From: Lacinutrix mariniflava
GTDB taxonomy: Bacteria; Bacteroidota; Bacteroidia; Flavobacteriales; Flavobacteriaceae
Length of the DNA: 64,000 nucleotides
Reading direction: 5' to 3'
Assembly (NCBI RefSeq): GCF_001418015.1
Contig: NZ_LIQG01000016.1
Location: 1-64,000, forward strand
A model generated the notes under the pieces. It saw only the letters and a program-made list of their open reading frames with translations, had not been told where the DNA came from and searched no databases. The translations under genes and the position numbers were made by a program. Positions 1,238 through 62,300 of the stretch are shown piece after piece. Every line of letters begins with the position of its first letter. The stretch's first letter is position 1.

Positions 1238-2581
1238 ATGGCTGATGATTTTGACTTATTAGAAACGAATTCTCAAGAGAAAACCGAAAAAGTAGATGTT
1301 AATTGGGGAAAAGCAATAGATACCATGAAATCTAAGCTAGCCCAAGAAGACGATCCCGAAAGTCGCCAGAAAATCCTTAACGCAACTTTAGACGATGTTG
1401 TGGATATGGCCGAAAAAGACAGATCAACACTTTTGGATGCGATTAAAGATTTAACAGACTATCAAGACGAAGTTGGTATTCTTTTCGAACGTTTTTCTTC
1501 ACTTAACGAAAAGGAACAAAAAGTTATTGACGATGCTCAAAAAGCATTAGAACGTAAAAAAATAGAATTAGAAGATGCTCTAAACAAACCAGACACTTGG
1601 TGGAATAACCTTTGGGGAAGAAAAAGCAAAATTAAAGCAGCAGAAACGTCTCTAAAAGAAGCCGAGAAAGTACGTGCAGGTGCAGATAATAAAGCCAAGG
1701 CAATGTTTCAGGAACGTATTGAAAGTGCAGATATTCAAACACTTTTAAGCGAATTATCATACAAATCTCAAGCAGCTGTAACACGTTTAAAAAACCGTGA
1801 AGTAGAAATAAAAGAAGTAGAAGAGAAACTTAAAGATGCTATTGTAGAGGCTTCTAAAAACCATACAAAAGCATTAGAGAAAAAGAAAGAGACAGAAGAT
1901 AAGCTAGAAGAGCAATACGCTTTACTAAAACAAGCGCGTCAAGCACTAGAAGATGTTTCAGATAAGCAATCAGCAGAATATTCAGAAGCTTTATCTAAAG
2001 TAACAACATTAGAGCAAAAAGTAGAAGAATTAGAAGGTCTTAAAAATGCTTATACAACATTAGCAGCCTCAAAAGATAGTTTCGTACACAAGCATAACTT
2101 AACTATTAAAGTATTAACATCTTTACGTTCAAACTTACAAACGCATCGTGCAAAATTAAAGAGTGATACAGACGAGCGTCTTAAATATTACGACGGTTAT
2201 GTTGTGGCATTAAAAGCAAGAACAGATCAAGAATTTGCTGCTATTTTAGAACATTTAGGTGTTAAAACCGATGAGCATATTGGTGCAACATTAGCGTCTA
2301 TGCATACTGCAAGTGCTAAAGCAAGACAAGAAATGATGGATAATATTCCAGTTCACGAAAAAGTTATGCAAGGCGTTTATGGTAGTTACGCAGAGGCTTT
2401 ACAAGAGATTAGAGCAAAAGATAGCGACATCCAAAAGAACTTTGCAGAGCGTTACGGTATCGACATGAAAGAAATGTTCGAAGACTATTACGCGGCAGAT
2501 GCAAACGCACCTTCTGGTGAAGGTGATGCCGCTCCAGCTCCAAAAAAAGAAGAGTCTAGCGACGACGATTTATTAGGGTAA
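1238..2581 (+). CDS. Long coiled-coil protein, unknown function
   Basis: A 447-residue, highly charged protein without signal peptide or membrane segment. Residues about 75-275 and 290-345 are rich in Lys, Glu and Ala heptads and should form long coiled coils, interrupted by a Trp-rich stretch WWNNLWG near residue 121. The C-terminus is low-complexity and ends in acidic residues (SSDDDLLG), echoing the acidic FDLLE near the N-terminus. It is the first gene of a run of nine plus-strand genes that includes an AAA+ ATPase. TelA-like (tellurite/toxic-anion resistance) coiled-coil proteins are a loose structural analogue, but I could not match their motifs. A scaffold or ATPase partner role is inference. 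Confidence 0.85.
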   Translation: MADDFDLLETNSQEKTEKVDVNWGKAIDTMKSKLAQEDDPESRQKILNATLDDVVDMAEKDRSTLLDAIKDLTDYQDEVGILFERFSSLNEKEQKVIDDAQKALERKKIELEDALNKPDTWWNNLWGRKSKIKAAETSLKEAEKVRAGADNKAKAMFQERIESADIQTLLSELSYKSQAAVTRLKNREVEIKEVEEKLKDAIVEASKNHTKALEKKKETEDKLEEQYALLKQARQALEDVSDKQSAEYSEALSKVTTLEQKVEELEGLKNAYTTLAASKDSFVHKHNLTIKVLTSLRSNLQTHRAKLKSDTDERLKYYDGYVVALKARTDQEFAAILEHLGVKTDEHIGATLASMHTASAKARQEMMDNIPVHEKVMQGVYGSYAEALQEIRAKDSDIQKNFAERYGIDMKEMFEDYYAADANAPSGEGDAAPAPKKEESSDDDLLG

Positions 2582-2583
2582 TT

Positions 2584-2735
2584 GTCACGTCGAGTGATTT
2601 TTGAGGCACAAAAAAAATGTATCGAGAAGCATTATGACGTTTCCTACTTTTGCTTACAATAGCAAAAGTAGGTCAGGCTTTCCGCTATATCTTTTTGTAG
2701 AAAAAACAAAAAGGATGCCGCTACAATCCTTAACG
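2584..2735. repeat. Dispersed intergenic repeat with two hairpins
   Basis: Begins with a CGAG-containing segment (CGTCGAGTG ... TATCGAGAAG) of the kind scattered through flavobacterial genomes. It contains a perfect 12-bp stem, CCTACTTTTGCT at 2643-2654 pairing with 2661-2672 around a 6-base loop. A second 8-bp stem, CTTTTTGT at 2691-2698, pairs with 2706-2713. It fills the gap between the coiled-coil gene and the next gene. No coding potential seen. Membership of a genome-wide family is from general knowledge of these genomes and was not searched. Confidence 0.6.
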
Positions 2736-2770
2736 CACGCACTCAAGTAAAACAATTATAAGAGTAAGTC

Positions 2771-2860
2771 ATCCGTGAAAATCTGTAAAAATCCGTGTCT
2801 TTAAGTCAGGGATAATCACATAAAGAGTAGTTTAAATTAGTGTAATTCGTGTCAAAAGAA
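2771..2860. repeat. ATCCGTG-type dispersed repeat
   Basis: Contains tandem imperfect copies of a roughly 14-base word (ATCCGTGAAA, ATCTGTAAAA, ATCCGTGTC) and then TGTAATTCGTGTCAAA just before the ATG at 2866. The same vocabulary recurs at 12018-12100, also upstream of a gene of this cluster. Such words are common dispersed repeats in Bacteroidota; function unknown. Confidence 0.55.
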
Positions 2861-2865
2861 AAGAA

Positions 2866-3927
2866 ATGTCATTAAATCACATAGTAACACCATTAGATTC
2901 TGCTGTTTTAGACAGTAAAGAACAATACGTGTTCTATCATAAAAAAGTAGATTTTGCCTTAAAAGAACTCATTACAAGTGTACAATTTAATAAGCTGTGT
3001 ACAGAACATGAGATGACCTATTTTAAGCAATATTGCGATTTGCTGTTGTATTCCATAGAAGCCATGCGTGTAAAATACATGTACGACGAAGAGGATAACA
3101 TGAAAATTGATGTAACAGAATCTGGTTTTCCAAATTATTTAGAGTTTCGTTATCTATATAACGACTTGTCATTAAGAGATAATTATTTAGACAAGTTAAA
3201 AGACGTTTCCGAATTACAAGAAGAATTCCTAACGCAGTTAATGCATAAAAAAGAGCCTATAAGACGCGATAAACTTTTTCAAGCAGCATCAATTGTTTAC
3301 TATACATCTGTAGAACAAAAGTATATTTTTAATCGTTTTGTACAAGGTAAAATTATACAAGCAGCAGCAGGAAGCCAAGCAGAATATATGGTAAGTTGGA
3401 GCTTTTACGATGTGTCTTTAAACAGACCATTTGTGTGCTTTATGTATTTCTATTTCGACGGGAAAAATCCTGAAGACCAAAAAGAAGAAATTTACGAGGT
3501 TCTAAAAACCGTAGCAGATAGAAAAATGGCACTAGACACTATGGCTTATGGTATAGACAGACGCTTAAAAAACTTAAAACCAAAACACATAAAACGTATA
3601 GATTTAGGGCCATTTCATAATATTTTTGCCAAAGACGAAAACATTTTAACACACAGTATTTTAGAAAGTATTGCTAAAAAAGAGGTGCCTTTAGAATCTT
3701 ATGCGCTATCCTTTAAAATAGACGAAGTATTTTCTGGTAGCGAATTTACCGAAGGTGGTTATTTTTCTAAACAAACATTACAAAAATGGAGCGATGTTGT
3801 AAAACAAAATTATGTATTTGCACCACATCGCATCATTCAATTATTATACAATAAGAATCCTGAAATTATGAACAAGCTGGCAAAACCACCTTTTCAAGTC
3901 GCAGATTTAAAAATGAAAAATATATAA
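2866..3927 (+). CDS. Conserved-looking soluble protein, unknown
   Basis: A 353-residue protein with no signal peptide or convincing membrane helix and a balanced charged/aromatic composition, so probably cytoplasmic. I recognise no domain. The middle (about residues 175-205) is rich in aromatic residues, and the C-terminal part ends in a basic helix. It sits 284 bases behind the coiled-coil gene, in the same orientation and with repeats between. By position it is a partner candidate for the AAA+ ATPase of the cluster. The clean ATG and long uninterrupted frame make it a real gene; its job cannot be read from sequence. Confidence 0.8.
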   Translation: MSLNHIVTPLDSAVLDSKEQYVFYHKKVDFALKELITSVQFNKLCTEHEMTYFKQYCDLLLYSIEAMRVKYMYDEEDNMKIDVTESGFPNYLEFRYLYNDLSLRDNYLDKLKDVSELQEEFLTQLMHKKEPIRRDKLFQAASIVYYTSVEQKYIFNRFVQGKIIQAAAGSQAEYMVSWSFYDVSLNRPFVCFMYFYFDGKNPEDQKEEIYEVLKTVADRKMALDTMAYGIDRRLKNLKPKHIKRIDLGPFHNIFAKDENILTHSILESIAKKEVPLESYALSFKIDEVFSGSEFTEGGYFSKQTLQKWSDVVKQNYVFAPHRIIQLLYNKNPEIMNKLAKPPFQVADLKMKNI

Positions 3928-3989
3928 AAAGTAGAGTAAATAAATCGATATGTATAAAATAAAAAACAGATAAGAATAGATAAAATTAT

Positions 3990-5000
3990 ATGAAAACAAA
4001 GACAACTTTTTCTATTTTATTTTTGTTTGTATTGTTTTTTTCTTGTCAAGAAAAAGCATCAAAAAAAGCGTCCTTTTACCATTGGAAAACAAAAGCAGTT
4101 TTTTCAAAACAATATGAAACAGCAATAAATATAGCACAATCCAATGCTATTTACTTACATTATTTTGATATAGAATCGACCCAAAAATCTAACTGGCAAA
4201 GCGATGGTGTTTTCCCAACATACGTTTTACAAGACGTTGCAAAACAGTATAAAGATTTTAAAATTATTCCTGTTGTTTTTATTTCAAATAAAATATTTAA
4301 AACTAAAGACTTAAATATCAATAGTTTGTCAAACAGAATTAAAACACTTATAAATCAAATAAGTCAAAAGCATTTTAATAAAAAAATAACAGAAATTCAA
4401 ATAGATTGCGATTGGACAGAAAGCAGTAAAAACGCTTATTTTAAACTTTTAGAATCATTAAATACAGAGTATAGCATTAACGCAACCATTAGATTGCATC
4501 AAATAAAATTTAAAGATAAAACAGGAGTTCCGCCAGTACAAAGTGGTACGTTAATGGTCTACAATATTGGAGATTTAAAAGACCAAAAACAAAATTCAAT
4601 TTTAGAAAACAACATAGTCAAACAGTATATTAATCCAGAATCAACTTACCCTTTAAAATTAAATATTGCTTTACCATTGTTTTCGCAAACGGTTGTGTTT
4701 AATAACGATAACCAAATAAAGCTAATTAAAGATTCAGATCGTTCAGTTTTAGAATCAGATTTTCATTTTAAAAAAGTAGATAAAACTAATTTTCAGGTTG
4801 TTAAAGACACACTTTATAAGGGTTTTTATTTAAGTAAAGGTTATAACTTGAAAATTGAAGAGTTAAATGAAACAGAAGTAATAAATTCATATAAAACAAT
4901 TAAAGACAGTAAACTTGATGTTAATGAGCTAATTATTTATCATTTAGATCAAAACTCATTATCAAACATTAATCTAAAGTCAATGTTAAAACAATTATGA
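3990..5000 (+). CDS. Lipoprotein, possibly DUF3142-like TIM barrel
   Basis: A 336-residue exported protein. The N-terminus is a signal peptide with a lipobox-like FFSC, Cys at residue 19. The body alternates predicted strands and helices. A segment around EIQIDCDWTESS, followed by YFKLLESL, resembles the conserved core of DUF3142 proteins, which look like glycoside-hydrolase-type barrels; that assignment is tentative. Its stop overlaps the start of the next gene by four bases (ATGA), so the two should be translationally coupled and act together outside the cytoplasm. AT content is especially high here, as in the next gene, compared with the flanking AAA+ and coiled-coil genes. Confidence 0.75.
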   Translation: MKTKTTFSILFLFVLFFSCQEKASKKASFYHWKTKAVFSKQYETAINIAQSNAIYLHYFDIESTQKSNWQSDGVFPTYVLQDVAKQYKDFKIIPVVFISNKIFKTKDLNINSLSNRIKTLINQISQKHFNKKITEIQIDCDWTESSKNAYFKLLESLNTEYSINATIRLHQIKFKDKTGVPPVQSGTLMVYNIGDLKDQKQNSILENNIVKQYINPESTYPLKLNIALPLFSQTVVFNNDNQIKLIKDSDRSVLESDFHFKKVDKTNFQVVKDTLYKGFYLSKGYNLKIEELNETEVINSYKTIKDSKLDVNELIIYHLDQNSLSNINLKSMLKQL

Positions 5001-7354
5001 AAAGCACATTAAAATATCTTTTTGTACTAATTTCATTTAGTTTATTTGCTAAAATAGATAAAGGGAATGAAAACATGTTTTACTGTGGAGGTGGAGAATG
5101 GTATGACTGGATGCAATTTTATAACCTATTTGAGCAAACAAATATTTCTGCAGAAGCCTATTATCCTTTTTTAAGAGATGAAGATGATACTTTTTATGGA
5201 GAAGAAGACACATACTATAATGAAGATAGAACAATTGTTTACCCAAAAGGAAATATAAGCTTATGGAATACAATTTTAAAAGGCTGGACTAATCAAGAGG
5301 TAACAGATGCTATTTATAAATCGGACCATTTTGATTGGAGTAGTAAGACTACAGAATTAGAAAAAAGAGCAAAATTATATATTGATTTTGCTAAAAAATG
5401 TAGTACCAGTTTTAACTATAGAAACAATAGTAACTCATGGGATTACGATGTAATTTTAAAAGATAAAAGTATTGATAAAACGGAATTATTAACCGAATTA
5501 AATACACTACTTAAAACAGAAAAAAACCAACAGTTAAAAGCAAGATATTATTATCAGATTATTAGAATTCTCCATTACTCTAAATCATGGAATGAGGCTG
5601 TGCAATTTTATGAGTCAACTATTGAAGGTAAGTTACCTAAAAACGAAATTTACTATTATATAGTAGATCAAGTAGCAGGTTGTTACTATTCTATTAAAAA
5701 ATATGATAAAGCTGCCTATTTGTTTACTAAAGTACTTAATAATAGTATTGATAGAAAAAAATCTGCGTACCTAAGTTTTAACTTTTGTTCTAATAAAAGT
5801 GCAGAAGGAAAATCTTTTTTTAAAAATATTGAAGACGAAAAAGATTTGTTACTTATTAAAAGTCTAAGAGGGTTTTCTGACGAAATTAATAATATAAATA
5901 AATTTATCAAACTTGATAATAATGATAATAGAGTAGAGTTATTGTTTATGCGTGCTTTAAGCAATGTAGAGCGTAATGTTTGGCCAAAACATATTGGTTT
6001 AGATAATAAAACACTTCCATATTTAGAAGAAGATAAAAAACGAGACAAACTATTGCTAATAGCAGAACAGCAAGCAAATGCAGCTAATATTAAAAACAAA
6101 GATTTTTGGAAAATATCAAGTTCTTATTTGTCTTTTATAAACAAGGATTTAGAAAAGGCAAAAATTAAATTAGCAGAAGTTAATTCGTTTTCCAATCAAA
6201 AAAAGGTACTGTCAATAATTTATGAGGTTTTTAGTTGGGATAGTATTAAGTCAAAGGATGAGGATTATATTTATAAAGTACTTAAAGACTACCCTATAAA
6301 TGATACTAATGACTGGGTAAATGATTCAGAAAATGATGATTTCAGAAATTTTATTTTAGATAAAATTGCACATACTTATTATAAAAATGGTGAATTAGCA
6401 AAAGCTTTTTTGGTTCATAATAATTTAGATGTACTTGTTAATACAAGTTCATTACAACTTTTAAATGCCTTAAATGATTTTTATTATAAGCAAAACAAAA
6501 GCGCTTTTGAAACCCAATTACTAAACCAAGCTTCAGAGAACACAAATTTTATAGATTATATAAATGTTCAGAAAGGGATTTATTACTTATATAACGCAAA
6601 CCCAGAACAAGCTGTAGTTTACTTTAATAAAAGTAGTAGCTATTTAAGTAATGCTTATATTCCGGATACTATTTTTAGTAATAATATTAAGGAATGTTTT
6701 GATTGTGAAGAGGAAAAAGTTATGGTCGATAAAGTGTATAAAGCCAAACTGTTTTCTTTTATAAAACCTAGCTTTACTAAAAAACAATTGGCAAGTAATT
6801 TACTAGAATTAATACAGTTAACTAAAGGCACTAAACAAAGCGAAGCTAAATTAGCAAACTATTTACTAGCAAACTACTATTATAACATCTCAAATACTGG
6901 CTATTACAGAGGTTTAATATCAGGTAGAAATTCTAATTGTTGTGATTATAATTATATAAGTTATGCAGATGATAATTATAGAGAAACTAAAGTAGGATCT
7001 GATGTAATACAAAAGCAATCGGGTTACAATTTGTATAATCTTACTAATTACGGAAAGCTTTATTTTGAGACTAGTAAAACAGCACACAAATATTATCAAC
7101 AAACAATTGACATGTCTAACGATAATGAGTTAAATGCAAGATGTAGCTATTTAATTGCAAAATGCGAATTAAATAAATATTATAATGAAGGATCAAATGA
7201 TGTTTACACAATGACGATAAGTAAATATTCTGACATAGAATTACCTAAAAGTAAAGGCTTTAAATTGCTTAAAGAAAATTATTCTGACACAGAATTTCAT
7301 AAATTAATTATTAAAGAATGTAGCTATTATAAATATTATAGTTCAACATTTTAA
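4997..7354 (+). CDS. Large exported helical (TPR-like) protein
   Basis: A 785-residue protein with an N-terminal signal peptide (about residues 1-18) and no membrane helices after it. Much of the remainder is predicted helical, with repeating Tyr/Leu/Ala spacing of tetratricopeptide type, for example around AVQFYESTIEGK and KAAYLFTKVLNN near residues 200-245 and AVVYFNKSSSYL later. It is rich in Asn, Lys and Tyr. Translation probably couples to the upstream lipoprotein through the ATGA overlap. It looks like a periplasmic or surface-exposed scaffold. No enzymatic motif was seen, and the true family is unknown to me. Confidence 0.75.
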   Translation: MKSTLKYLFVLISFSLFAKIDKGNENMFYCGGGEWYDWMQFYNLFEQTNISAEAYYPFLRDEDDTFYGEEDTYYNEDRTIVYPKGNISLWNTILKGWTNQEVTDAIYKSDHFDWSSKTTELEKRAKLYIDFAKKCSTSFNYRNNSNSWDYDVILKDKSIDKTELLTELNTLLKTEKNQQLKARYYYQIIRILHYSKSWNEAVQFYESTIEGKLPKNEIYYYIVDQVAGCYYSIKKYDKAAYLFTKVLNNSIDRKKSAYLSFNFCSNKSAEGKSFFKNIEDEKDLLLIKSLRGFSDEINNINKFIKLDNNDNRVELLFMRALSNVERNVWPKHIGLDNKTLPYLEEDKKRDKLLLIAEQQANAANIKNKDFWKISSSYLSFINKDLEKAKIKLAEVNSFSNQKKVLSIIYEVFSWDSIKSKDEDYIYKVLKDYPINDTNDWVNDSENDDFRNFILDKIAHTYYKNGELAKAFLVHNNLDVLVNTSSLQLLNALNDFYYKQNKSAFETQLLNQASENTNFIDYINVQKGIYYLYNANPEQAVVYFNKSSSYLSNAYIPDTIFSNNIKECFDCEEEKVMVDKVYKAKLFSFIKPSFTKKQLASNLLELIQLTKGTKQSEAKLANYLLANYYYNISNTGYYRGLISGRNSNCCDYNYISYADDNYRETKVGSDVIQKQSGYNLYNLTNYGKLYFETSKTAHKYYQQTIDMSNDNELNARCSYLIAKCELNKYYNEGSNDVYTMTISKYSDIELPKSKGFKLLKENYSDTEFHKLIIKECSYYKYYSSTF

Positions 7355-7388
7355 ATCAAGATATAGTAATATAGAATACTAAAAAAAC

Positions 7389-9347
7389 ATGGAACACAAC
7401 TCAACTTTCCCAATAAAAAAGAATGAACTAGACATGCTTCGCGACGAAGCAAGTGGTTATCTTAAAAGTATACAATGGGAACAAGGAGCAAGAGCCAAAA
7501 ATAAAGATAAAGACGCAAAAGACGAATCTATTTTATTGTATTTGTCAAGAGCAAATAATGGAAGTGGAGCTACAGAAATTACTTCGGTTTCTAAAACAAT
7601 TTTAGCTTTAAAAAAGCGATTATTACCAGATTCTATCGCTATTCCTGTGCATTTAAACCAAACGCTTTTTGCTGTGCAAGAAGGTATTGCTTTAGGTATT
7701 TGGGTAAAAGATAGTTATTATGATGGTTCAGGATTATCAAACTTAAATGAGCGTAAATCTAGTTTAGATTCTAACGGAAAACGAGAATATGAAAGTAAGA
7801 TGCATACCTCTACAGCATTTATGTTGTTTGCTATGGCTTACAATATTCTTCATAATTTAAAACCATTGGCATCAGACGATTTATCTGTTATGAAACAGAA
7901 ATTCGCTGGCTTACCAGAAGTCTCTTTTATTACGCCTCTAAAAGGAATTGCTTGTAGTTTGTTTTATTACGATAAATATTTAGGGCATCCAGATATTGTA
8001 AAAACAGATAAAGACGTCATTGACTTTACGGTAGTATATTATGAAGCTTTAATAGCCGAAATTCAACTACGTAAAAGTAGCTTAGAATACACCGAAACTA
8101 TTATAGATAGAACCTATAAACTAGAAAATAGTGAGTTTGCAATTTCAGGTTGGGATAATGTGTTTTCTGGAACTGCAAAAAGCATTGAATTTAATAAAAT
8201 TAAGTTCGAGCAAATTGTAGGTAACAGAGATGCAAAACACTTTGCAAGACGTTTAACTGAGCGTATGCTGAGTTACGATTTCGAGGTAAAAAAGAATCCA
8301 TTTCAAGAACTTGGTGGTTTCATGCCAGTTTTCATGGGTTATGGTATTCCAGGTACAGGAAAAAGTATGTTAATTGCAGCAATCGCTACACGATTAAAAG
8401 AACATGCAGATAATTTAGATATTCCGTTTTTATTTCATCCAATGCCAGATACTTTAATTAGTACCTTTCAAGGTGGATCTGCCGAAAAAATGGTAGAATG
8501 GATGAAGCCAATGCAAGATCCTTCAAAATTAATTTTTGCACCTATTGATGATGCAGAGAATAATTTACAAGAACGTACAGCACAAGGTGTATCAGCTGGT
8601 GTAAAAGAGGTTATAGGTGTTTTTCTTCGTTACACAGAAGGAGCTTACGCAGTAAATTATGGTAATAGTTCTATTGGATTATTTACCAATTTGCCAGAAA
8701 TGTTAGATAAAGCGATAATCTCTCGCGTGCAAGGTCGTTTTAAAATTGATGGAGCACGAACAGAGCACGATTTCTTAGATCAAGATCATTTATGGTGGAG
8801 AAAATTGGAGAAAACAATGCCAGATTTCGTAAATATGTCAAGTCCAAAAGATTACGAATATCTAAAAGATCAAGGCTTAGCTAAAAACATGGGAGATATT
8901 TTGAATAGTGTCGAAAAACCAAGTGAAGTGAGAGTTTTAGAAGCTTATGACAAGGCCGAAAAATTGCATAGTACAAACGATCATTTATTCTACGCAGGCT
9001 TATATAAAGAGATTCAAAAAATATTTCCATTCTTCTCTTCTAGAGATGTTAGAAACATTCAATCTGCAATTTCGTTACGTTTAACAGATTTCGATTTAGA
9101 ACAAGATTGGTTCGATAAACCTGAGGTTTACTTTAAGCAGAATTACGAAACAAAATTTAATATGCTTCAAGAACTAATGAAAGGAAATATGAAAGGTTTA
9201 AACTTTTCAGAGATTAGAAGACAAGAAGTTGTACGTTACTTAGATAACGTGGCAACCATTGCAGATACAGACTTTAAACGTAAAGTTGATGCAAAAGTAA
9301 ACCAAATGAATATTGATTTAAAGGCAAGAGAAACGTTTGGTAATTAG
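7389..9347 (+). CDS. AAA+ family ATPase with unusual N-terminal half
   Basis: A 652-residue cytoplasmic ATPase. The AAA+ module begins near residue 300, with Walker A GIPGTGKS at residues 319-326. A Walker B-like IDDAE has its Asp residues at 387-388 and Glu at 390, one residue further than the usual DE. The segment SRVQGRF matches the arginine-finger region of AAA proteins. About 300 residues precede the module and match nothing I know; about 150 helical residues follow. The chemistry (ATP-driven remodelling) is expected from the family. The substrate is unknown, but co-directional coiled-coil and membrane genes suggest a remodelled complex. Confidence 0.88.
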   Translation: MEHNSTFPIKKNELDMLRDEASGYLKSIQWEQGARAKNKDKDAKDESILLYLSRANNGSGATEITSVSKTILALKKRLLPDSIAIPVHLNQTLFAVQEGIALGIWVKDSYYDGSGLSNLNERKSSLDSNGKREYESKMHTSTAFMLFAMAYNILHNLKPLASDDLSVMKQKFAGLPEVSFITPLKGIACSLFYYDKYLGHPDIVKTDKDVIDFTVVYYEALIAEIQLRKSSLEYTETIIDRTYKLENSEFAISGWDNVFSGTAKSIEFNKIKFEQIVGNRDAKHFARRLTERMLSYDFEVKKNPFQELGGFMPVFMGYGIPGTGKSMLIAAIATRLKEHADNLDIPFLFHPMPDTLISTFQGGSAEKMVEWMKPMQDPSKLIFAPIDDAENNLQERTAQGVSAGVKEVIGVFLRYTEGAYAVNYGNSSIGLFTNLPEMLDKAIISRVQGRFKIDGARTEHDFLDQDHLWWRKLEKTMPDFVNMSSPKDYEYLKDQGLAKNMGDILNSVEKPSEVRVLEAYDKAEKLHSTNDHLFYAGLYKEIQKIFPFFSSRDVRNIQSAISLRLTDFDLEQDWFDKPEVYFKQNYETKFNMLQELMKGNMKGLNFSEIRRQEVVRYLDNVATIADTDFKRKVDAKVNQMNIDLKARETFGN

Positions 9348-9364
9348 AAAAAACTAAAATAGAA

Positions 9365-9943
9365 GTGACAAATAGAATAAAAAATATAGTAGACGAAACG
9401 TTGCATAAAGGATGGGCAAAGTTAAGTGAAATCGCATTCGATTATAAAATGAGCGCAGGTAATTGGGTTCATAAAAAAAGAGAATCTTACAATCGCGGTG
9501 ATGGTGCTACAATTCTATTATATAATAAAAAAAAGAAGACGGTAATTTTAGTAAAACAATTTAGAATTTCTGCTTTTTTAAATGGTTGTAAACCAGGTTT
9601 TGTTATAGAATCATGTGCTGGAATGTTAGATGTAGATAGTCCTGAAAAGTGCATTATTAGGGAAACTGAAGAAGAAACGGGTTATAGAATAAAAGAAGTA
9701 AAGAAAATTTATGAAGCCTACTCTTCACCCGGAGCTTTAACCGAAAAACTATACTATTTTGTCGCAGAGTATACCGATGAAATGAAAGTAAGTAAAGGTG
9801 GTGGTTTAGAAAGTGAACAGGAAGATATTGAAGTTTTAGAAATGCCATTTAAAGAGGCATTTCAAAAAATTGAAACTGGAGAAATTATTGATGCAAAAAC
9901 CATAATATTATTACAATATGCACAGATTAATAATTTAGTATAA
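9365..9943 (+). CDS. nudK: NUDIX hydrolase, GDP-mannose pyrophosphatase NudK-like
   Basis: A 192-residue NUDIX hydrolase that closely follows the NudK pattern, hydrolysing GDP-mannose and related nucleoside-diphosphate sugars. A GNGATILLY-like stretch (here RGDGATILLYN) precedes ESCAGMLDVD and then RETEEETGY, which gives the shortened Nudix-box spacing typical of NudK. The start is GTG: the protein aligns from its first residues with NudK, and the next ATG would remove the first strands. It lies 17 bases after the AAA+ gene, so it is very likely co-transcribed with it. Why a sugar-nucleotide hydrolase sits in this cluster is unclear. Confidence 0.9.
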   Translation: MTNRIKNIVDETLHKGWAKLSEIAFDYKMSAGNWVHKKRESYNRGDGATILLYNKKKKTVILVKQFRISAFLNGCKPGFVIESCAGMLDVDSPEKCIIRETEEETGYRIKEVKKIYEAYSSPGALTEKLYYFVAEYTDEMKVSKGGGLESEQEDIEVLEMPFKEAFQKIETGEIIDAKTIILLQYAQINNLV

Positions 9944-10002
9944 TTAATATTCTATTCTCAGTTTAAGGACTAAGAATCTCAATGAAATAAAATTAAAGAT
10001 TA

Positions 10003-10014
10003 CCGCTTTTGCGG
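10003..10014. repeat. Short GC-rich hairpin before a start codon
   Basis: CCGC TTTT GCGG forms a 4-bp GC stem with a T4 loop, 7 bases before the ATG at 10022. A related word (TTTCCGAGAAAGCGGGAAT) lies at 27474. Probably a fragment of a dispersed palindromic repeat; an effect on translation is possible but unproven. Confidence 0.45.
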
Positions 10015-10021
10015 AAACAAG

Positions 10022-11257
10022 ATGCAAAAACTAAAAGAAGCAAATCTATACAGAAGCGAACTTATTCCAATTAGTGGAAAATTAGTAGAACGTTATAATA
10101 AATGCTTAGTAAAGCTTGGATTTATGCCAACTAAACTAAAAATATTTTCTATAGATGGAAAGGGATGGAGTCCAGAGATTGCTGAAGAAAAAAAGACTTT
10201 ACATTATTTAAATAATGGTGAAGCAAATCCGCATGCTATAATAATTTCTCCTTTACAAAAAGGGAAACCTGTATATGTTCCGTTTCATACTTTCGATCGT
10301 GAAATGATGCAATATATTTTTAAAACTCACGAAGCAAAGATTAATAATATTACACGAGATAGCGCCATTTGCATAGATTTCGACCAAAATATTGATGCGT
10401 TTTACGAGCCTTTAGATGTTTTAAAATACGATACAGTAAATATTAGTTTTCATTTAATTGATAACTTAGATAATGTTAGAAAAGAACAATTAGATCTTAT
10501 TCATAAATTTAAACAAGGCAATAATTTTATAGATGAAACATTACATGCTCAACTATTAAAATCGGCTATAACTTATGGCGATTTAAGGCATAGAGATTTA
10601 GAATTGCACGAACTTCAGTATACTACCAATTCCTTTTATACAAAGGCATTTGGAGGTGTTTATGTGCTAAGAGATTTTATAAAAGAAATTGTAGTTTTCG
10701 AGGATAAAAAATGGCATAAAGAAGCCATAAAAGATACAACGCACGACGTGTTGATTTATCATATTTTACAACCAGAATTAATGGATAAGTTAAGAGATCA
10801 TGTTATTATAGAATGTGATCTTGAAGTTGAAGTAAAAACAGAACGATACGAGCGTATTAAAAAGTTTGTTTTTGCAGAGACTATAAAAAATCCGCAACAT
10901 TCATTTATAGCTATTTTAAATGATAAAGTATTAACTAAGAGTTATTTAAATAAGTTGCCAATTGAAGATAGAAAACGAGTAATGAGTGTTGAGCGTTATC
11001 TTGAAAAACTTGAAGTTAGTAACGAATATAAAATTTCTGATATTGTAGATTTAAAGTTTTTTGAAGCGCTGCATAAACCACATTCGTCGTTAGACGCAAA
11101 ACATCAAGATTTAATTTGGAAGCTATTAATTAATGTTTCTGCCAAAGATGTTTTATTTTTATACTGGTATGATAAAGAACAGTTTTATAAAACGTACGAT
11201 ACTTGGAATACTTCATTAAAGGAGTGGGTAATCCAGGAGATTAGTAATAATATCTAA
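10022..11257 (+). CDS. Conserved soluble protein, unknown (DUF6638-like?)
   Basis: A 411-residue protein with no signal peptide or membrane segment. Its Lys/Glu/His-rich composition and multiple predicted helices in the C-terminal third suggest a cytoplasmic protein. I vaguely associate this size and composition with the Bacteroidota family DUF6638 but cannot confirm it. No catalytic motif is evident. It follows nudK by 78 bases and precedes two membrane-protein genes in the same orientation, so it is a member of the AAA+ cluster by position. The start is ATG, right after a small GC-rich hairpin. Confidence 0.78.
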   Translation: MQKLKEANLYRSELIPISGKLVERYNKCLVKLGFMPTKLKIFSIDGKGWSPEIAEEKKTLHYLNNGEANPHAIIISPLQKGKPVYVPFHTFDREMMQYIFKTHEAKINNITRDSAICIDFDQNIDAFYEPLDVLKYDTVNISFHLIDNLDNVRKEQLDLIHKFKQGNNFIDETLHAQLLKSAITYGDLRHRDLELHELQYTTNSFYTKAFGGVYVLRDFIKEIVVFEDKKWHKEAIKDTTHDVLIYHILQPELMDKLRDHVIIECDLEVEVKTERYERIKKFVFAETIKNPQHSFIAILNDKVLTKSYLNKLPIEDRKRVMSVERYLEKLEVSNEYKISDIVDLKFFEALHKPHSSLDAKHQDLIWKLLINVSAKDVLFLYWYDKEQFYKTYDTWNTSLKEWVIQEISNNI

Positions 11258-11386
11258 ATTTATTATAAAATAAATGTAGTTTTCAAATCCTTTGAAGTCA
11301 GGAATAAAAAACAGCAAATTAAAGATTAACTAGCAAGAGTATGAAACTTATAATTTCTAACTTGAAGCTTCAAACAAAGCAAAACT

Positions 11387-11908
11387 ATGACAATAGAGAT
11401 AATAATATTTATAGCCTCAATTCTTTTCGGAATTGTATTGTATTGGAGAGAATCTAAATCTAATAAAGTATATAGTTTTTTTAATAAATTATTTTATTCA
11501 AAAGAACTTCAAATTAAGACAGGAAGTAAAAAAGGCTTTCTATACCAGCAATCATTCTTAATGCGTTTGGTTTATATTGGTGTTTTGTTTTTATTAGGAA
11601 TAATAATACTTAGGTTTATTATACCAATAGATGTTTATACAATACAATTATTTGTAGCAAGTATTTCGGGTACTTTAGTTGGAACTTATTTAGCAAATTT
11701 CGTCTTTAAATCGTCTGAAGTATTAGACGAAAAAGGAGACTCTTTAGTAGATGCTGTAAAAGATACTGTAGAAAAAGGAAAAGATTTTATAAAAGATCTA
11801 GAAACAAAAGATACTGAAGCGATACAAGAAGCAAAAAAAGAAATTAAAGAACCAGAAGCACCAAAGAAGAGTGCTAGACAAAGGTTAAAGGATAAAGGGC
11901 ATTTGTAG
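11387..11908 (+). CDS. Membrane protein with acidic/basic tail
   Basis: A 173-residue protein with three predicted hydrophobic segments (about residues 3-19, 58-78 and 84-107) and then a charged helical cytoplasmic tail of about 65 residues. The tail is Glu/Lys-rich and ends in a basic KSARQRLKDKGHL. No family recognised. It is a plausible membrane anchor for the soluble partners of the cluster, with the tail as docking site; this is inference from topology and position only. Confidence 0.75.
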   Translation: MTIEIIIFIASILFGIVLYWRESKSNKVYSFFNKLFYSKELQIKTGSKKGFLYQQSFLMRLVYIGVLFLLGIIILRFIIPIDVYTIQLFVASISGTLVGTYLANFVFKSSEVLDEKGDSLVDAVKDTVEKGKDFIKDLETKDTEAIQEAKKEIKEPEAPKKSARQRLKDKGHL

Positions 11909-12017
11909 ATTAGTTAAAAGAGAGAAGAATTAAGAGTGAAGAGTGAAGAGTAAGTTGAACATTAGCAATTAAATTCGTAAAATAATAGTAGCAACCAACA
12001 CATGAGTAATCACGAAC

Positions 12018-12100
12018 AATCTGTGAAAATCAGTGTAATCTGTGTCAAAGAAAACAAGAGTAATCACGTAAGATAAGTGAAAATTTGTGTCATTCGTGGA
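12018..12100. repeat. ATCTGTG-type dispersed repeat, second copy
   Basis: Two clusters of the same words seen at 2771-2860: AATCTGTGAAAATCAGTG followed by TAATCTGTGTCAAAG, then a looser copy (AAGTGAAAATTTGTGTC) to 12100. It occupies most of the 244-base gap before the 580-residue membrane protein gene. No coding potential seen. Confidence 0.55.
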
Positions 12101-12129
12101 AAAAAAATATAAGTTTAATTAAAAAGAGA

Positions 12130-12147
12130 TTCCTGCCTACGCAGGAA
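12130..12147. repeat. Perfect palindrome just before a start codon
   Basis: TTCCTGC CTAC GCAGGAA is a perfect 7-bp stem with a 4-base loop, ending 5 bases before the ATG at 12153. It matches the CCTGCgtaGGCAGG-style palindromes dispersed in flavobacterial genomes (general knowledge, not searched). Because it would occlude the initiation region when folded, it could modulate translation. Confidence 0.55.
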
Positions 12148-12152
12148 ATGTT

Positions 12153-13895
12153 ATGATAAAAAATTACTGGAATAAAGGAGGGAAACAAAAGCGAATAGTA
12201 ATTGTTTTAAGTTTAATAATAATTGGATTATTATTTTTTATGCGAGATGATTACCAACCAGCTTTACTGTTTGTAAGAAAATTTATATTCATAATATTAC
12301 TTTGTGTTATAGTACTTTTCTTTGGGTTAAGAACTTTTAGAAAGCAAGCGTCTACAGGGAAACGTATTTTTATGCTTGCAATTATGGGAGTGTTTTTTGG
12401 AGCCTTATATTTTGTGGGATGGAAAATGGAATTATACGACTATATGAAAACGTATAATGTCTTCAACGATTTAAATAAGGTTAATATTTCTGAATTACCA
12501 TTAACACAAAATGAACGCATTCAGCCATTAAAAAATATTCATTCTATGGGAAATGAAAGTGTTGGTGAAACAAAAGATGTTTCATTACCACATTTAGTTC
12601 GCGTAGATGGAGAAAATAAATGGACAATGGCAATTCAACCTACCGAAAAATATTATTGGCAAGGAATGCGAGATAATACCGAAGAGGTGTTTTCTGTATC
12701 GAGTACAACGCCATTTCCACGCTTTTCTAACGAGAATAGAATTCCTGTAACATTCTCCATTGGTGAGTCTCTAAAATTTAGTAGAAACACATACAATGCG
12801 GTTGTACAACGTTTTAATCCTTGGATGCTTGTTAATTACGAACCAAGCGATACGTTTTACATGAAAAATGATACAGGACAATGGGTAGAAGTAGTTAGTT
12901 TAATAAAATGGAAAGGGTTCTTTTTTCCTTATCCTTCTTTTGGAGGTGTTATGCTTATAGAAAATGGTGAACACGATGCTAACGATTATTTAGAACGTAT
13001 TACTATTGGAAAAGGAAAATATATAGCTCCAGACGAAATGAAAAACTTTCCTTTTCTAACCAAGCAAAATACATTAGCAGAAAAAATATCGCGCTTACAG
13101 GCAGAATCTTTAAAGTTCTTAGGTGGGTTTAGCGATCCATTACCTTGGAATATGGAGACAGCTGTTAAGATTCCAGATTTAGCAGATGACCAAAACCAAC
13201 AACCATTCGTAACCGATTTTAATTTTGAAGATACAAAAATAGGTGCTTACAGTGGTTTATACCATTGGTTTGGTTTAGAACCAGTAGGAGATGAGCGCAC
13301 AAGTTTAACGTATAGTGTTTTTGTACCTGCAGATGGAACAGATAAATTATATTACTACGATCATGCAGCAAAAAAACAAGGTTATGCGGGCGTTTCTGCA
13401 ATGCCTTTAAAAGTAATAGAATCTCGTAAAGAATTCGATTGGTCTGTAAATAAGCCTGTAGAGTTTAGACCATATATAAAGGATATTGCGGGACGTAGAA
13501 GACTCTTTTTTATAGGAACAATTTCTGCAATAAGAGAAGGTTCAGATAACTTTGATGGTGCTGCAACTCCAGATTTAGCTATAATTGATAGCGAATATAG
13601 AGATGTAGTTTGGATAGATGTTAAACACCCAAGTGGTTGGGAAAAAGAGATTTATAACCAATTAAGCGAAGCTTGGCGTTCTAGCGAAGGTATTGGAGAT
13701 TATTTTGTCGAGGATACAAAAATTATTGATGTAGTTGGAGATAGCTTAAACGGAATAAACATTAAACCTTTTGAAGAAAAAACAGATGATGACCTATCTA
13801 TAGAAACACTACAGCATAAAATAGATTCAATTAAAAAACTTGAAGAAATTAAACATTTAAAACGTGAGTTAGACTCGTTGAAGCGTTTGAAATAA
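12153..13895 (+). CDS. Membrane-anchored protein with large soluble domain
   Basis: A 580-residue protein. Three hydrophobic segments lie within the first about 100 residues (near 16-30, 37-56 and 70-90). A roughly 430-residue soluble domain rich in Trp, Pro and beta-like sequence follows, and then a C-terminal coiled coil (IDSIKKLEEIKHLKREL and on). No catalytic motif or known domain was recognised. It is the last gene of the co-oriented cluster. The topology suggests a membrane-bound structural or sensor component. A different ATG five bases upstream is out of frame and closes immediately, so 12153 is the start. Confidence 0.78.
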   Translation: MIKNYWNKGGKQKRIVIVLSLIIIGLLFFMRDDYQPALLFVRKFIFIILLCVIVLFFGLRTFRKQASTGKRIFMLAIMGVFFGALYFVGWKMELYDYMKTYNVFNDLNKVNISELPLTQNERIQPLKNIHSMGNESVGETKDVSLPHLVRVDGENKWTMAIQPTEKYYWQGMRDNTEEVFSVSSTTPFPRFSNENRIPVTFSIGESLKFSRNTYNAVVQRFNPWMLVNYEPSDTFYMKNDTGQWVEVVSLIKWKGFFFPYPSFGGVMLIENGEHDANDYLERITIGKGKYIAPDEMKNFPFLTKQNTLAEKISRLQAESLKFLGGFSDPLPWNMETAVKIPDLADDQNQQPFVTDFNFEDTKIGAYSGLYHWFGLEPVGDERTSLTYSVFVPADGTDKLYYYDHAAKKQGYAGVSAMPLKVIESRKEFDWSVNKPVEFRPYIKDIAGRRRLFFIGTISAIREGSDNFDGAATPDLAIIDSEYRDVVWIDVKHPSGWEKEIYNQLSEAWRSSEGIGDYFVEDTKIIDVVGDSLNGINIKPFEEKTDDDLSIETLQHKIDSIKKLEEIKHLKRELDSLKRLK

Positions 13896-59358: not shown

Positions 59359-62300
59359 ATGAAAAACAAAACTACTTTATTGATTGCTTTTGTCTTAGCA
59401 ATTTTCACAACAACAACTTCATTCGGTCAGCTCGTTACGAGTTCTGCAGATGATGGATCTCCAGGAACGCTTCGAGTGGAAGTAGCAAATGCTGCTGCAG
59501 GAAGCACTGTAACATTCGATCCCGCAGTGACTGCAATTACTTTAATTTCAGGAGAAATATTAATAGATAAAAATCTAACTATTTCGGGTGCATCAAGTTC
59601 TACAATATCTGTAGATGCAAATAACACAGGAAGAATATTTAATATTACAGCAGGTTCTGTAGTATTAGAAAACTTAAATTTAACAAATGGCTTAGCTGAT
59701 AATGGTGGAGCCATTTTTATTTCTAATGCATCTGTAACTATTAGTGATTCAGTACTAACAGGAAATATTGCAAACGGTACACCTGGTTCAGGTGGTGCAA
59801 TTTTTAATGATGTTGGTGGAGTCTTAATAGTTAATGATACGGAGATTTCGTCAAATCAAGCGAATAGAGCTGGTGGTGGTATAGAAGATAACTCAGGAAC
59901 AGGATTAGCAATTACTCTAAACAATGTGAATTTAGATAATAATAATGCAGGAGTTGCACCGGCAACAGCAGCTCCAGGAAATGGAGGAGGTTTACATATT
60001 ACTGGACCGGGAAGTGCTATTGTAAATGATGGAACTGTAATAGGAAATACTGCTGCTCGAGAAGGTGGTGGATTATGGAATGGAAGTGGTCTTTTAGATT
60101 TAAATGGTGTAACTATATCGGGTAATTCAGCAGTTGGAGATGTAACTGGAGGAGGAGCATTATTTAATAATGGTAGTGGAACAATAGATATTGATGCCAC
60201 AACAACATTAACAGGAAACATAGCAATGGGAGCTACACCAGGAGGTCGTGGTGGAGCGATTTTTAACAATGTAGATGGTATTTTAAATTTAGCCAATGGA
60301 TTATCTATTACGGGAAATTATGCTAGTAGAGCTGGAGGAGGTATTGAAGATTCTTCTGGAGGAACATTAACTTTAGATGGTGTAACACTTACTGGAAACT
60401 CAGCAGGTATGGATATTGGATTAGGAGCGATGGCGAACCCAGGAAATGGAGGAGCTGTTCATTTATCTGGAACTACAAATGCGACAGTTTCAGGGTTTTC
60501 TACGATTTCGAATAACTTAGCAGCAATCGAAGGTGGTGGACTATGGAATAATTTAGGAACTATGGATGTAAGTTTTACATTTTTAGATAATAATATCGCT
60601 TCGGGTGATGCTGCAGACGATGGTGGAGGAGCAATTTTTAATAACGGAGGAACATTAGTTGTTGGAAATGCTTCTGCATTAACAAATAATATAGCAGATG
60701 GAACAGCGGGTTCTGGAGGTGCTATTTTAAGTACTGATGGCTCAGTAAATATAATAGATGCTGTATTAGCTTTTAACAGATCTAATCGTGCAGGTGGTGC
60801 AATTGAAATTATAGACGGTTCAATAGCTATGTCTGGTAACTTTAACATAAACGGAAATAATACTGGTGTTGCACCAGCTGTAGCTAGTCCTGGAAATGGA
60901 GGAGGTCTTCATATAAGTGGAAGTGGAACAGCTGTGATAACAGGTGGTACTATTAGTAATAATATGGCTGCGAGAGAAGGTGGTGGTTTATGGAATAGCA
61001 CAGCAGCAATGACTGTAAATGGAACTACTTTAAATGGAAATGATGCACAAGGCGTTACCGCGAATGATGGAGGTGGTGCCATTTTTAATAATGGAGGCAC
61101 CTTAACAGTAGAAAACGGAACAACGATAACTAATAACACAGCAACAGGAACTTCAGGTTCTGGTGGTGGTATTATGTCAACCGATGGAATAGTTACTGTT
61201 GTTGGTTCTACAATTACATCTAACACGTCAAACAGAGCAGGTGGAGGAATTGAATTAATAGAGGGAACATTAAATTTAACGTCTACAACTTTAAATTCAA
61301 ATGCAACAGGATCTGCACCAGGAAATGGAGGAGGACTTCATATAACAGGAGCAGCGAATTCTAATATTACAGGAGGAACTGTTAATATGAATACAGCAGC
61401 AAGAGAAGGTGGAGGATTATGGAATGGATCAGGAATCATGACTGTTGATGGAGTAATTATAGATGGAAATACAGCAAGTGGACCTGCATCAGATGATGGT
61501 GGAGCAGGAATTTTTAATAATGGAGGAACACTTGTAGTACAAAACATGACTACGATTAGTAATAATATAGTTGATGGAGCTTCAGGATCTGGAGGTGGAG
61601 TTTTTAGTACAGGAGGAGATGTTACAGTTAATGGATCTTCAATTACAATGAATCAAGCCAATAGAGCTGGAGGAGGAATTGAGTTAGCAGGAGGTATTTT
61701 AAATCTTGTTAATGTTACATTAGATAATAATAATGCAGGAGTTTTACCGGCAGTAGCCGCTCCAGGAAGTGGAGGAGGATTACACGTAACTGGATCTGCG
61801 ACAACTAATATAACAGGAGGAACAACTAATGGAAATAGTGCCGCAAACGAAGGTGGAGGTCTATGGAATGGTTCAGGAATAATGACTGTATCAAACCATG
61901 CGGTAGATGGTAATACAGCATCAGGAAATGATGGAACAACACCTGGAGCAGCTGGAGGTGGAGGAATCTACAACGAAGGCGGAACATTAAATTTATCAGG
62001 ATCTACTTCTATAGTAAATAATGTTGCAGATGGCGCACAATCTACAGGTGGAGGAATATTAAATGCAGCAGGAACATTAAATGCAGATGGTATTATAATA
62101 ATGGATAATACTGCTAACAGAGCGGGTGGAGGAATAGAAACAAATGGAGGTGGAGCAGTAACGCTTACCAATGTTAGTTTAAATTCTAATGATGCAGGTA
62201 TTGTTACAGGAGCAGGAGCACCAGGAAATGGTGGAGGTTTACACGTAAGTGGAAATAGTGCTATTACTTTAACAGGTGGAACAGTAAATATGAATACTGC

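What the first reader, a model, noticed from the sequence alone, without database searches (positions are those of the whole stretch)
1238..13895. Nine-gene AAA+/coiled-coil/membrane cluster of mostly unknown genes
All nine genes point one way and combine a 447-residue coiled-coil protein, an AAA+ ATPase with a novel N-terminal half, a NudK-like hydrolase 17 bases behind it, two soluble unknowns, an exported coupled pair and two membrane proteins, one with a docking-like charged tail and one with a large outer domain. This composition looks like an ATP-driven remodeller linked to a membrane platform. I know of no described system with this set, but it may just be poorly annotated core flavobacterial biology.
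Basis: partly seen in the sequence, partly recalled or inferred. Interest (0 to 1): 0.7.

Follow-up and report, generated by a model that had tools for sequence, protein, structure and literature searches.

The report
Undescribed six-gene AAA+ membrane-linked module
Six of the nine reported genes form a strongly conserved and apparently undescribed bacterial gene module built around a probable ATP-driven remodelling enzyme; four of the six are also kept together in rhizobia and Vibrio, which points to an unstudied cellular system.

Summary
The nine genes exist as described but are not one unit. Genome comparison gives a six-gene core: A (coiled coil), B, E (AAA+), G (DUF6638) and the membrane proteins H and I. 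Their order is intact in 73 of 80 Flavobacteriaceae loci and in 15 of 17 loci chosen as divergent or oddly spaced. B, E and H occur in the same 51 of 149 family genomes, I in those plus one. Two genomes with a broken cluster still keep the genes. A-B-E-G occurs in the same order in all six proteobacterial loci read, of ten found, with non-circular profile support. C-D gave no hit in 100 relatives' stretches and NudK is a frequent passenger.

Best reading: E is a classical AAA+ polypeptide remodeller (with an unusual Asp-Asp Walker B) working with a coiled-coil partner, two adaptor-like proteins and a membrane pair. Substrate and role are unknown; an ESCRT/Vps4-like action is untested. No open-library paper holds DUF6638 or PF20343.

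The parts
1238..2581 (+). A: 447-aa acidic helical/coiled-coil protein, core gene
   Evidence: next to B in relatives; proteobacterial homologue by non-circular hhalign P 4.3e-10, reversed control 0.12
1238..1264 (+). A N-terminal motif M[SA]DDFDLLE before a short linker
   Evidence: 86 of 94 flavobacterial A proteins match; 7 others differ by one residue; L088 was read from an internal start by the script, its match beginning 81 bases upstream, and is not assessed
2561..2578 (+). A C-terminal acidic motif ending DDLL[S/G] after a linker of variable length
   Evidence: 93 of 94 match [DE]D[ML]L[SG] at the end
2866..3927 (+). B: 353-aa soluble protein of no known family, core gene
   Evidence: same 51 of 149 genomes as the AAA+ gene; proteobacterial homologue P 1.5e-19, reversed control 0.25
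3990..5000 (+). C: 336-aa exported lipoprotein-like protein (my reading of its start); inserted passenger, not part of the module
   Evidence: no hit in 80 and 20 relatives' stretches; GC 0.253
4997..7354 (+). D: 785-aa exported TPR-like protein, overlapping C; inserted passenger
   Evidence: found in 2 of 148 family genomes; the other one (G365) has C upstream of D and no AAA+ gene
7389..9347 (+). E: 652-aa AAA+ ATPase with a helical N-terminal half, core gene
   Evidence: Pfam AAA 7.2e-9; 85-95% identity in the 80 kept genome hits; proteobacterial homologue P 1.1e-52
8337..8363 (+). Walker A GxGxPGTGK (residues 317-325)
   Evidence: invariant in 18 of 18; 97 of 97 flavobacterial
8457..8474 (+). 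pore-loop-like IS[T/S/E][F/Y]QG (residues 357-362)
   Evidence: I, S, Q, G invariant in 18 of 18; 96 of 97 flavobacterial match IST[FY]QGG
8544..8552 (+). Walker B end IDD (residues 386-388), second acid Asp instead of the usual Glu
   Evidence: 18 of 18; 97 of 97 flavobacterial
9365..9943 (+). F: NudK-like Nudix hydrolase; frequent passenger of the operon, not core
   Evidence: ORF in 51 of 80 loci, overlapping E in 26 of the 51; 0 of 17 further loci
10022..11257 (+). G: 411-aa DUF6638 protein, core gene
   Evidence: PF20343 106 bits, cut-off 27; proteobacterial homologue P 7.8e-31
11387..11908 (+). H: 173-aa membrane protein with charged tail, core gene in Flavobacteriaceae
   Evidence: same 51 of 149 genomes as the AAA+ gene
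11870..11899 (+). H C-terminal motif SAR.RLK.KG
   Evidence: 84 of 89 H proteins; the other 5 differ by one residue
12153..13895 (+). I: 580-aa protein, three N-terminal TM helices then a large domain inferred to lie outside the membrane, core gene in Flavobacteriaceae
   Evidence: 52 of 149 genomes: the 51 with the AAA+ gene plus G408; TM-like segments 15-33, 38-56, 72-90

Best explanation
A-B-E-G-H-I is one functional module. E is a classical AAA+ ATPase, probably a hexamer, that pulls on a protein through its pore (F/Y-Q-G loop). The coiled-coil protein A is its most likely substrate or recruited scaffold; B and G are non-catalytic adaptors; H and I anchor the complex at the inner membrane, H through its cytoplasmic tail and I with a periplasmic domain. 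In rhizobia DUF2333 may take the place of the membrane part. ATP hydrolysis would assemble or dismantle an A-containing structure at the membrane. Shown here: gene content, order, co-inheritance, motifs, cross-phylum homology. Inferred: hexamer, threading, substrate, contacts, topology and membrane role.
For: Order conserved in 73 of 80 and 15 of 17 loci; B, E, H in the same 51 of 149 genomes, I in 52. G360 keeps A-B-E, G-H and I at three separate places and G390 keeps A-B-E-G and H-I on two contigs, so co-retention is not only proximity. A-B-E-G in the same order in all six proteobacterial loci read, of ten records found, with B and E within 10 bases of each other in the four rhizobial ones; homology by non-circular profiles. 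AAA+ motifs invariant; nearest solved relatives by sequence are a VCP-like ATPase (4.8e-5), then Vps4 and Rpt4 at 0.001-0.002. A and E are about as conserved as UvrA in the same 17 genomes (A 72-89%, E 68-85%, UvrA 74-87%). H and I have TM segments; DUF2333 follows G in three of the four rhizobial loci with the module.
Against: No interaction, ATPase or localisation data. Walker B has Asp instead of the usual Glu, so hydrolysis may be weak. The AAA part of the E model is low confidence (mean pLDDT 62.5, AAA mostly under 50) and Foldseek found nothing at E 0.001 or better; the I model is poor (37.9). A has no TM segment and no family over a Pfam cut-off. I has no relative in the plasmid collection and H was not searched there, so no membrane partner is shown for Vibrio. 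G408 keeps I without the rest. Co-occurrence counts are inflated by shared ancestry, which I did not correct for.
Confidence: 0.45

Rival explanations
1. E and A act on DNA or the chromosome: A is an SMC/Rad50-like coiled coil without its ATPase heads and E is its motor, with the membrane proteins as an anchor for segregation or repair.
For: A's best NCBIfam and PADLOC scores, all insignificant, are to Rad50, SMC and MukB/JetC-like coiled coils (E 0.006-0.06). Phage profiles of a DnaC-like loader (window E) and a clamp loader (Vibrio E) overlap the AAA domain.
Against: Those hits are coiled-coil and P-loop generic. Nearest solved AAA relatives are protein remodellers. No DNA-binding family is over its cut-off in the proteins scanned; the closest are TMF_DNA_bd, E 0.016, in the Vibrio A and SAD_SRA, E 0.012, in E.
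Confidence: 0.12
2. The module is a stress or defence system (tellurite/Ter-like, phage shock-like or anti-phage) that is dispensable in most relatives.
For: Patchy: 51 of 149 family genomes and 4 of 296 phylum genomes; present on Vibrio megaplasmids.
Against: PADLOC gives only weak, generic overlaps: IetA on the AAA domain (3.6e-5) and JetC on the coiled coil (0.008 at best). A is not TelA by profile. E at 68-95% identity within the family and a fixed gene order are unlike fast-changing defence genes (general knowledge). Neighbours look like ordinary chromosomal genes (my reading). No phage-record relative of E or G and one weak AAA-domain hit in viral contigs.
Confidence: 0.2
3. The operon is a looser group: E, A, B and G form one complex while H and I do something separate.
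For: No relative of I was found in the plasmid collection that holds the proteobacterial A-B-E-G, and G408 keeps I and NudK while E, B, H and G are absent from its genome and A from the 19 kb around I.
Against: H and I accompany E in 51 of 51 carriers, also in the two genomes where the cluster is broken.
Confidence: 0.18

Closest known systems
Classical AAA ATPases (PF00004): Vps4/CdvC, CDC48/VCP, FtsH, proteasomal Rpt
   Same: Walker A, Arg-finger region, F/Y-Q-G pore-loop-like motif, AAA domain over the Pfam cut-off
   Different: Asp-Asp Walker B; its own N-terminal half and long C-terminal part; scores far under the cut-offs of the NCBIfam AAA models it touches
ESCRT-III/Vps4 and PspA/Vipp1 with AAA+ partners (PMC11237479, passages seen)
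   Same: a coiled-coil protein encoded near a classical AAA+ ATPase
   Different: no Snf7, PspA or MIT match in Pfam; A against PspA gives P 5e-4 for the flavobacterial profile (reversed controls 0.02 and 0.027) but 0.14 for the proteobacterial one
TelA (PF05816), found beside a TerD-like gene in L119 (my reading) and xpaC in L147
   Same: helical protein of similar size in an operon of unclear biochemistry
   Different: profile comparison of A with TelA gives P 0.047 to 0.56
DUF6638 (PF20343)
   Same: G is over the curated cut-off, and so are the counterparts in one rhizobial and one Vibrio locus scanned
   Different: the family has no assigned function

Membership tests
classical AAA ATPase (PF00004) | AAA domain over the curated cut-off | tested here: met
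   36.6 bits, cut-off 21.2
classical AAA ATPase (PF00004) | Walker A GxxGxGK[ST] | tested here: met
   GIPGTGKS; pattern G.G.PGTGKS in 97 of 97
classical AAA ATPase (PF00004) | Walker B ending in Asp-Glu | tested here: not met
   Asp-Asp in 97 of 97 flavobacterial and 6 of 6 proteobacterial rows; still acidic, so activity is not excluded
classical AAA ATPase (PF00004) | Arg residues of the second region of homology | tested here: met
   R446 and R450 invariant in 18 of 18 and 34 of 34; the stricter pattern RVQGRF in 91 of 97; the role is assigned from general knowledge
Vps4 | N-terminal MIT domain | tested here: not met
   no MIT match up to E 0.1 in the three E proteins scanned
ESCRT-III / PspA (for A) | Snf7 or PspA_IM30 homology | tested here: inconclusive
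   no Pfam match; hhalign P 5e-4 and 0.14 against one PspA group, 0.23 and 0.096 against the other; no Snf7 profile was compared
TelA (for A) | PF05816 homology | tested here: not met
DUF6638 (for G) | score over curated cut-off | tested here: met
   106 bits, cut-off 27
NudK equivalog (for F) | NCBIfam equivalog cut-off | tested here: not met
   222.3 bits, cut-off 234; subfamily TIGR00052 met, 171.7 against 79.55
known anti-phage defence systems | PADLOC match specific to a system | tested here: not met
   only weak generic overlaps with IetA and JetC in the module, PDC-S07 for NudK
AAA+ protein remodeller | ATP-dependent unfolding or disassembly of a protein | not testable with these tools
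   needs biochemistry

The most novel reading that the evidence does not exclude
A forms a filament or coat at the inner face of the membrane, held by H and I, and E dismantles it by binding short acidic Leu-Leu motifs at A's ends and threading A through its pore: an ESCRT-III/Vps4-like membrane-remodelling machine of independent origin, with its A-B-E-G core shared by Flavobacteriaceae, rhizobia and Vibrio, and not yet described.
Probability: 0.13. Interest if true: 0.85.

Novelty: new variant of a known kind. Interest (0 to 1): 0.55.

Why it matters
A closely co-inherited AAA+ module, with A and E about as conserved as UvrA and its core shared by two distant phyla, for which these searches found no paper under its family names, points to a missing piece of bacterial cell biology. 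It can be tested at once: a Sinorhizobium meliloti strain and many named marine flavobacteria carry it, and the gene set is now defined (six genes, four of them shared by both phyla, three of the nine excluded).

Tried and rejected
Nine-gene unit: rejected, because C-D gave no hit in the relatives' stretches compared and NudK is facultative. C-D is an independent rare pair (D in 2 of 148 genomes; C beside D in the second one).

A as TelA: no profile support. A as PspA: one weak score, not supported by the proteobacterial profile. The A1 against A11 comparison is circular because A1 already holds proteobacterial rows, so I replaced it with flavobacterial-only profiles. Single-sequence BLASTP of A against its proteobacterial counterparts is weak (best 1.2e-5 with Vibrio, 0.29 with S. 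meliloti), so A's homology rests on the profiles and on its position. B and G as relatives of each other, and I as a relative of DUF2333: no support.

Profile searches of the PDB with A, B, G and I gave nothing usable (the best is B against an 80-residue stretch of a Csm6, E 0.0047). Structure prediction: I failed; E is good mainly in the N-terminal helical bundle, residues about 67-231; Foldseek found nothing. Viral contigs: no relative of B or G and one weak AAA-domain hit for E. Phage records: none for E or G. Plasmids: none for I. With the flavobacterial query G was found in only 6 of the 10 records, not in Vibrio; in the two Vibrio records read it is annotated as DUF6638 and one was confirmed by Pfam.

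Literature: DUF6638 0 papers and PF20343 0; DUF2333 1 paper, listing only; DUF2333 with AAA 0; S. meliloti gene numbers 1 and 0; keyword searches gave 0, 1, 0 and 2 papers (the one seen in passages, the two as listing only). Subscription papers are mostly not held and bioRxiv is not. A single Bacteroidota-type promoter pattern on the + strand printed no site in the first 16 kb; the sigma-70 scan gave 90 sites against 80.8 expected, so nothing can be said on promoters.

Not done: correction of the co-occurrence counts for phylogeny; search for A in the 149-genome set; G in that set (searched in five genomes, and as PF20343 in the 296-genome phylum sample); H in the plasmid collection.
Full report
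WHAT IS THERE. I name them A (447 aa, coiled coil), B (353), C (336), D (785), E (652, AAA+), F (192, Nudix), G (411, DUF6638), H (173, membrane) and I (580, membrane). Of the nine, Pfam puts over its cut-offs only the AAA domain of E, the Nudix domain of F and DUF6638 in G. The window is G000:C16:1-64000 of a 3.97-Mb genome; the nearest named relative found is Lacinutrix algicola, 95% identical in E.

SIX GENES ARE THE UNIT IN FLAVOBACTERIACEAE. A scan of one genome per species with E gave 303 relatives, of which the best 80 were kept; the titles name Flavobacteriaceae or genera that I recall as belonging there (one is titled Flavobacteriales), 85-95% identical in the best segment. In 73 of the 80 loci A, B, E, G, H and I are all present in that order on one strand. 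Of the other seven, L018, L019, L054, L063, L081 and L083 are cut by a contig end, and L060 has G about 9 kb further on at the edge of the stretch. To reach more distant members I took 20 stretches from 18 family genomes, chosen for low scores or unusual spacing and so not a random sample. Of the 17 of these genomes with E, 15 have all six in order; G360 and G390 are split. One of the 17 (L142, 85%) could be a species already among the 80. C and D gave no hit in the 80 or the 20 stretches, a few of which are too short to show the B-E gap. F has an ORF in 51 of the 80, overlapping the end of E in 26 of the 51, and in none of the 17.

ALL OR NOTHING. In 149 family genomes, E is found in 51, B in 51, H in 51 and I in 52. 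The E, B and H lists are the same genomes; the extra one for I is G408, which has no E, B, H or G in its genome and no A in the 19 kb around its I, but keeps NudK there. Read from the tables, E and I start within about 9 kb of each other in 49 of the 51 carriers; the exceptions are G360 and G390. G360 has A-B-E at 1.83 Mb, G-H at 2.58 Mb and I at 2.68 Mb; G390 has A-B-E-G and H-I on two contigs. These two matter most, because the genes are separated yet none is lost. A Fisher test of E against I gives p 2e-39 but ignores shared ancestry and should not be read as a probability. In the phylum sample, E and DUF6638 were each found in the same 4 of 296 Bacteroidota genomes, all in this family.

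FOUR GENES CROSS PHYLA. The plasmid collection holds relatives of E (27-28% identity, best E-value 3e-54, at least 80% of the query covered in 9) in 10 records of Sinorhizobium, Shinella, Rhizobium and Vibrio. B, searched with the S. meliloti protein, is in the same 10. G, searched with the window protein, was found in 6, not in Vibrio, where it is annotated as DUF6638 and passes Pfam in the one scanned. I read six of the ten. In all six, homologues of A, B, E and G follow in the same order on one strand, with B and E within 10 bases of each other in the four rhizobial loci. Two of the six carry an endonuclease-like gene between E and G, one of them with an IS4 transposase as well. Several of these 'plasmid' records are 3.5-4.6 Mb, that is chromosome-sized. 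Homology was tested without circularity, flavobacterial profile against proteobacterial profile: A P 4.3e-10 (reversed control 0.12), B 1.5e-19 (reversed control 0.25), G 7.8e-31, E 1.1e-52. For A alone single-sequence BLASTP is weak (best 1.2e-5). In three of the four rhizobial loci with the module DUF2333, which I read as a membrane protein, comes right after G. A further Rhizobium plasmid has an A relative (32% identity) beside DUF2333, and that record was not among the hits for E, B or G.

WHAT THE PROTEINS SAY. E has GxGxPGTGK, IS[T/S/E][F/Y]QG (where AAA remodellers have their pore loop), IDD at Walker B, N434 and R446/R450, invariant in 18 of 18 aligned rows apart from the choices shown. 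Over 97 flavobacterial sequences the Walker A, pore and IDD patterns match in 97, 96 and 97, and the stricter pattern RVQGRF around the arginines in 91. The Asp-Asp Walker B is a constant departure from the common Asp-Glu. The best solved relatives by sequence are a VCP-like ATPase (4.8e-5), then Vps4 and Rpt4 at 0.001-0.002. The N-terminal half is modelled as a helical bundle with good confidence (residues about 67-231), but the AAA part of the model is poor. A has no TM segment, is acidic (net -23) and carries a near-constant start M[SA]DDFDLLE (86 of 94) and end [DE]D[ML]L[SG] (93 of 94) around linkers of changing length, which is what docking motifs look like. H has two clear TM segments and a third weak one (my reading), then a charged tail ending in SAR.RLK.KG (84 of 89). 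I has three TM segments; by the positive-inside rule (inference) its large C-terminal domain is periplasmic. Mean column identity of I is 79% over 17 sequences. Against UvrA in the same 17 genomes (74-87%), A (72-89%) and E (68-85%) are about equally constrained.

MECHANISM. The best-supported reading is a membrane-linked AAA+ protein remodeller. Shown: the motifs, the fixed gene set and the co-inheritance. Inferred: that E is a hexamer, that A is its substrate or scaffold, that B and G are adaptors (I saw no catalytic signature in the invariant columns), and that H and I (perhaps DUF2333 in rhizobia) hold the complex at the membrane. The role in the cell is open.

COMPARISON WITH KNOWN SYSTEMS. 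E is a member of the classical AAA group by Pfam, but one textbook feature (Walker B Glu) is not met, and the scanned members pass no NCBIfam cut-off. A is not TelA by these tests. The PspA/ESCRT-III question stays open: one weak score (P 5e-4, reversed controls 0.02 and 0.027) for the flavobacterial profile, none (0.14) for the proteobacterial one. The PSP survey PMC11237479 (passages seen) describes PspA and Snf7 next to several AAA+ types; in the passages I saw, nothing matches this set. DUF6638 and PF20343 appear in no paper of the open library.

VERDICT. The mechanism is plausible but unproven.

Noticed in passing
2667-2752, - strand: Flavo-1 RNA (RF01705, 57.7 bits) lies between A and B, antisense to the operon; it sits in the same A-B gap in 3 of 6 relatives searched: L009, L048, L061.
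   Followed up: partly
3990-7354: C-D exported pair inserted between B and E; GC 0.25-0.26 against 0.315 for the window; a distant copy of the pair in G365 (L152), a genome without the AAA+ gene.
   Followed up: partly
L138 (G408): A genome that keeps I and NudK but lacks E, B, H and G, with no A near I: a natural partial loss, useful for asking what I does alone.
   Followed up: partly
L122 (Rhizobium leguminosarum pSK03): Thymidine kinase, a diverged A homologue and DUF2333 side by side; the record is not among the hits for E, B or G.
   Followed up: partly
L090, L094 (Vibrio megaplasmids): A-B-E-G on 0.88-0.93-Mb replicons, directly followed on the same strand by an mfd gene.
   Followed up: no
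own genome and six other Flavobacteriaceae: No PspA/Vipp1 (PF04012) in 7 of 7 same-family genomes among the 80 sampled; of these seven only the own genome carries E, so this is no replacement pattern by itself.
   Followed up: no
about 2780-2865 and 12030-12110: Similar stretches with repeated TGTGTCA/CGTGTCA words in two intergenic gaps of the cluster, perhaps a dispersed repeat (seen).
   Followed up: no
PMC3687685, Table 1, fragment F9: A ChvI-bound intragenic fragment in S. meliloti SMc02733 (section read). By recalled numbering it may lie in this locus, which would tie it to an envelope regulator; not verified.
   Followed up: no
59856-63764, - strand: Several Pro-rich ORFs opposite what may be a long repetitive gene running off the window end.
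   Followed up: no
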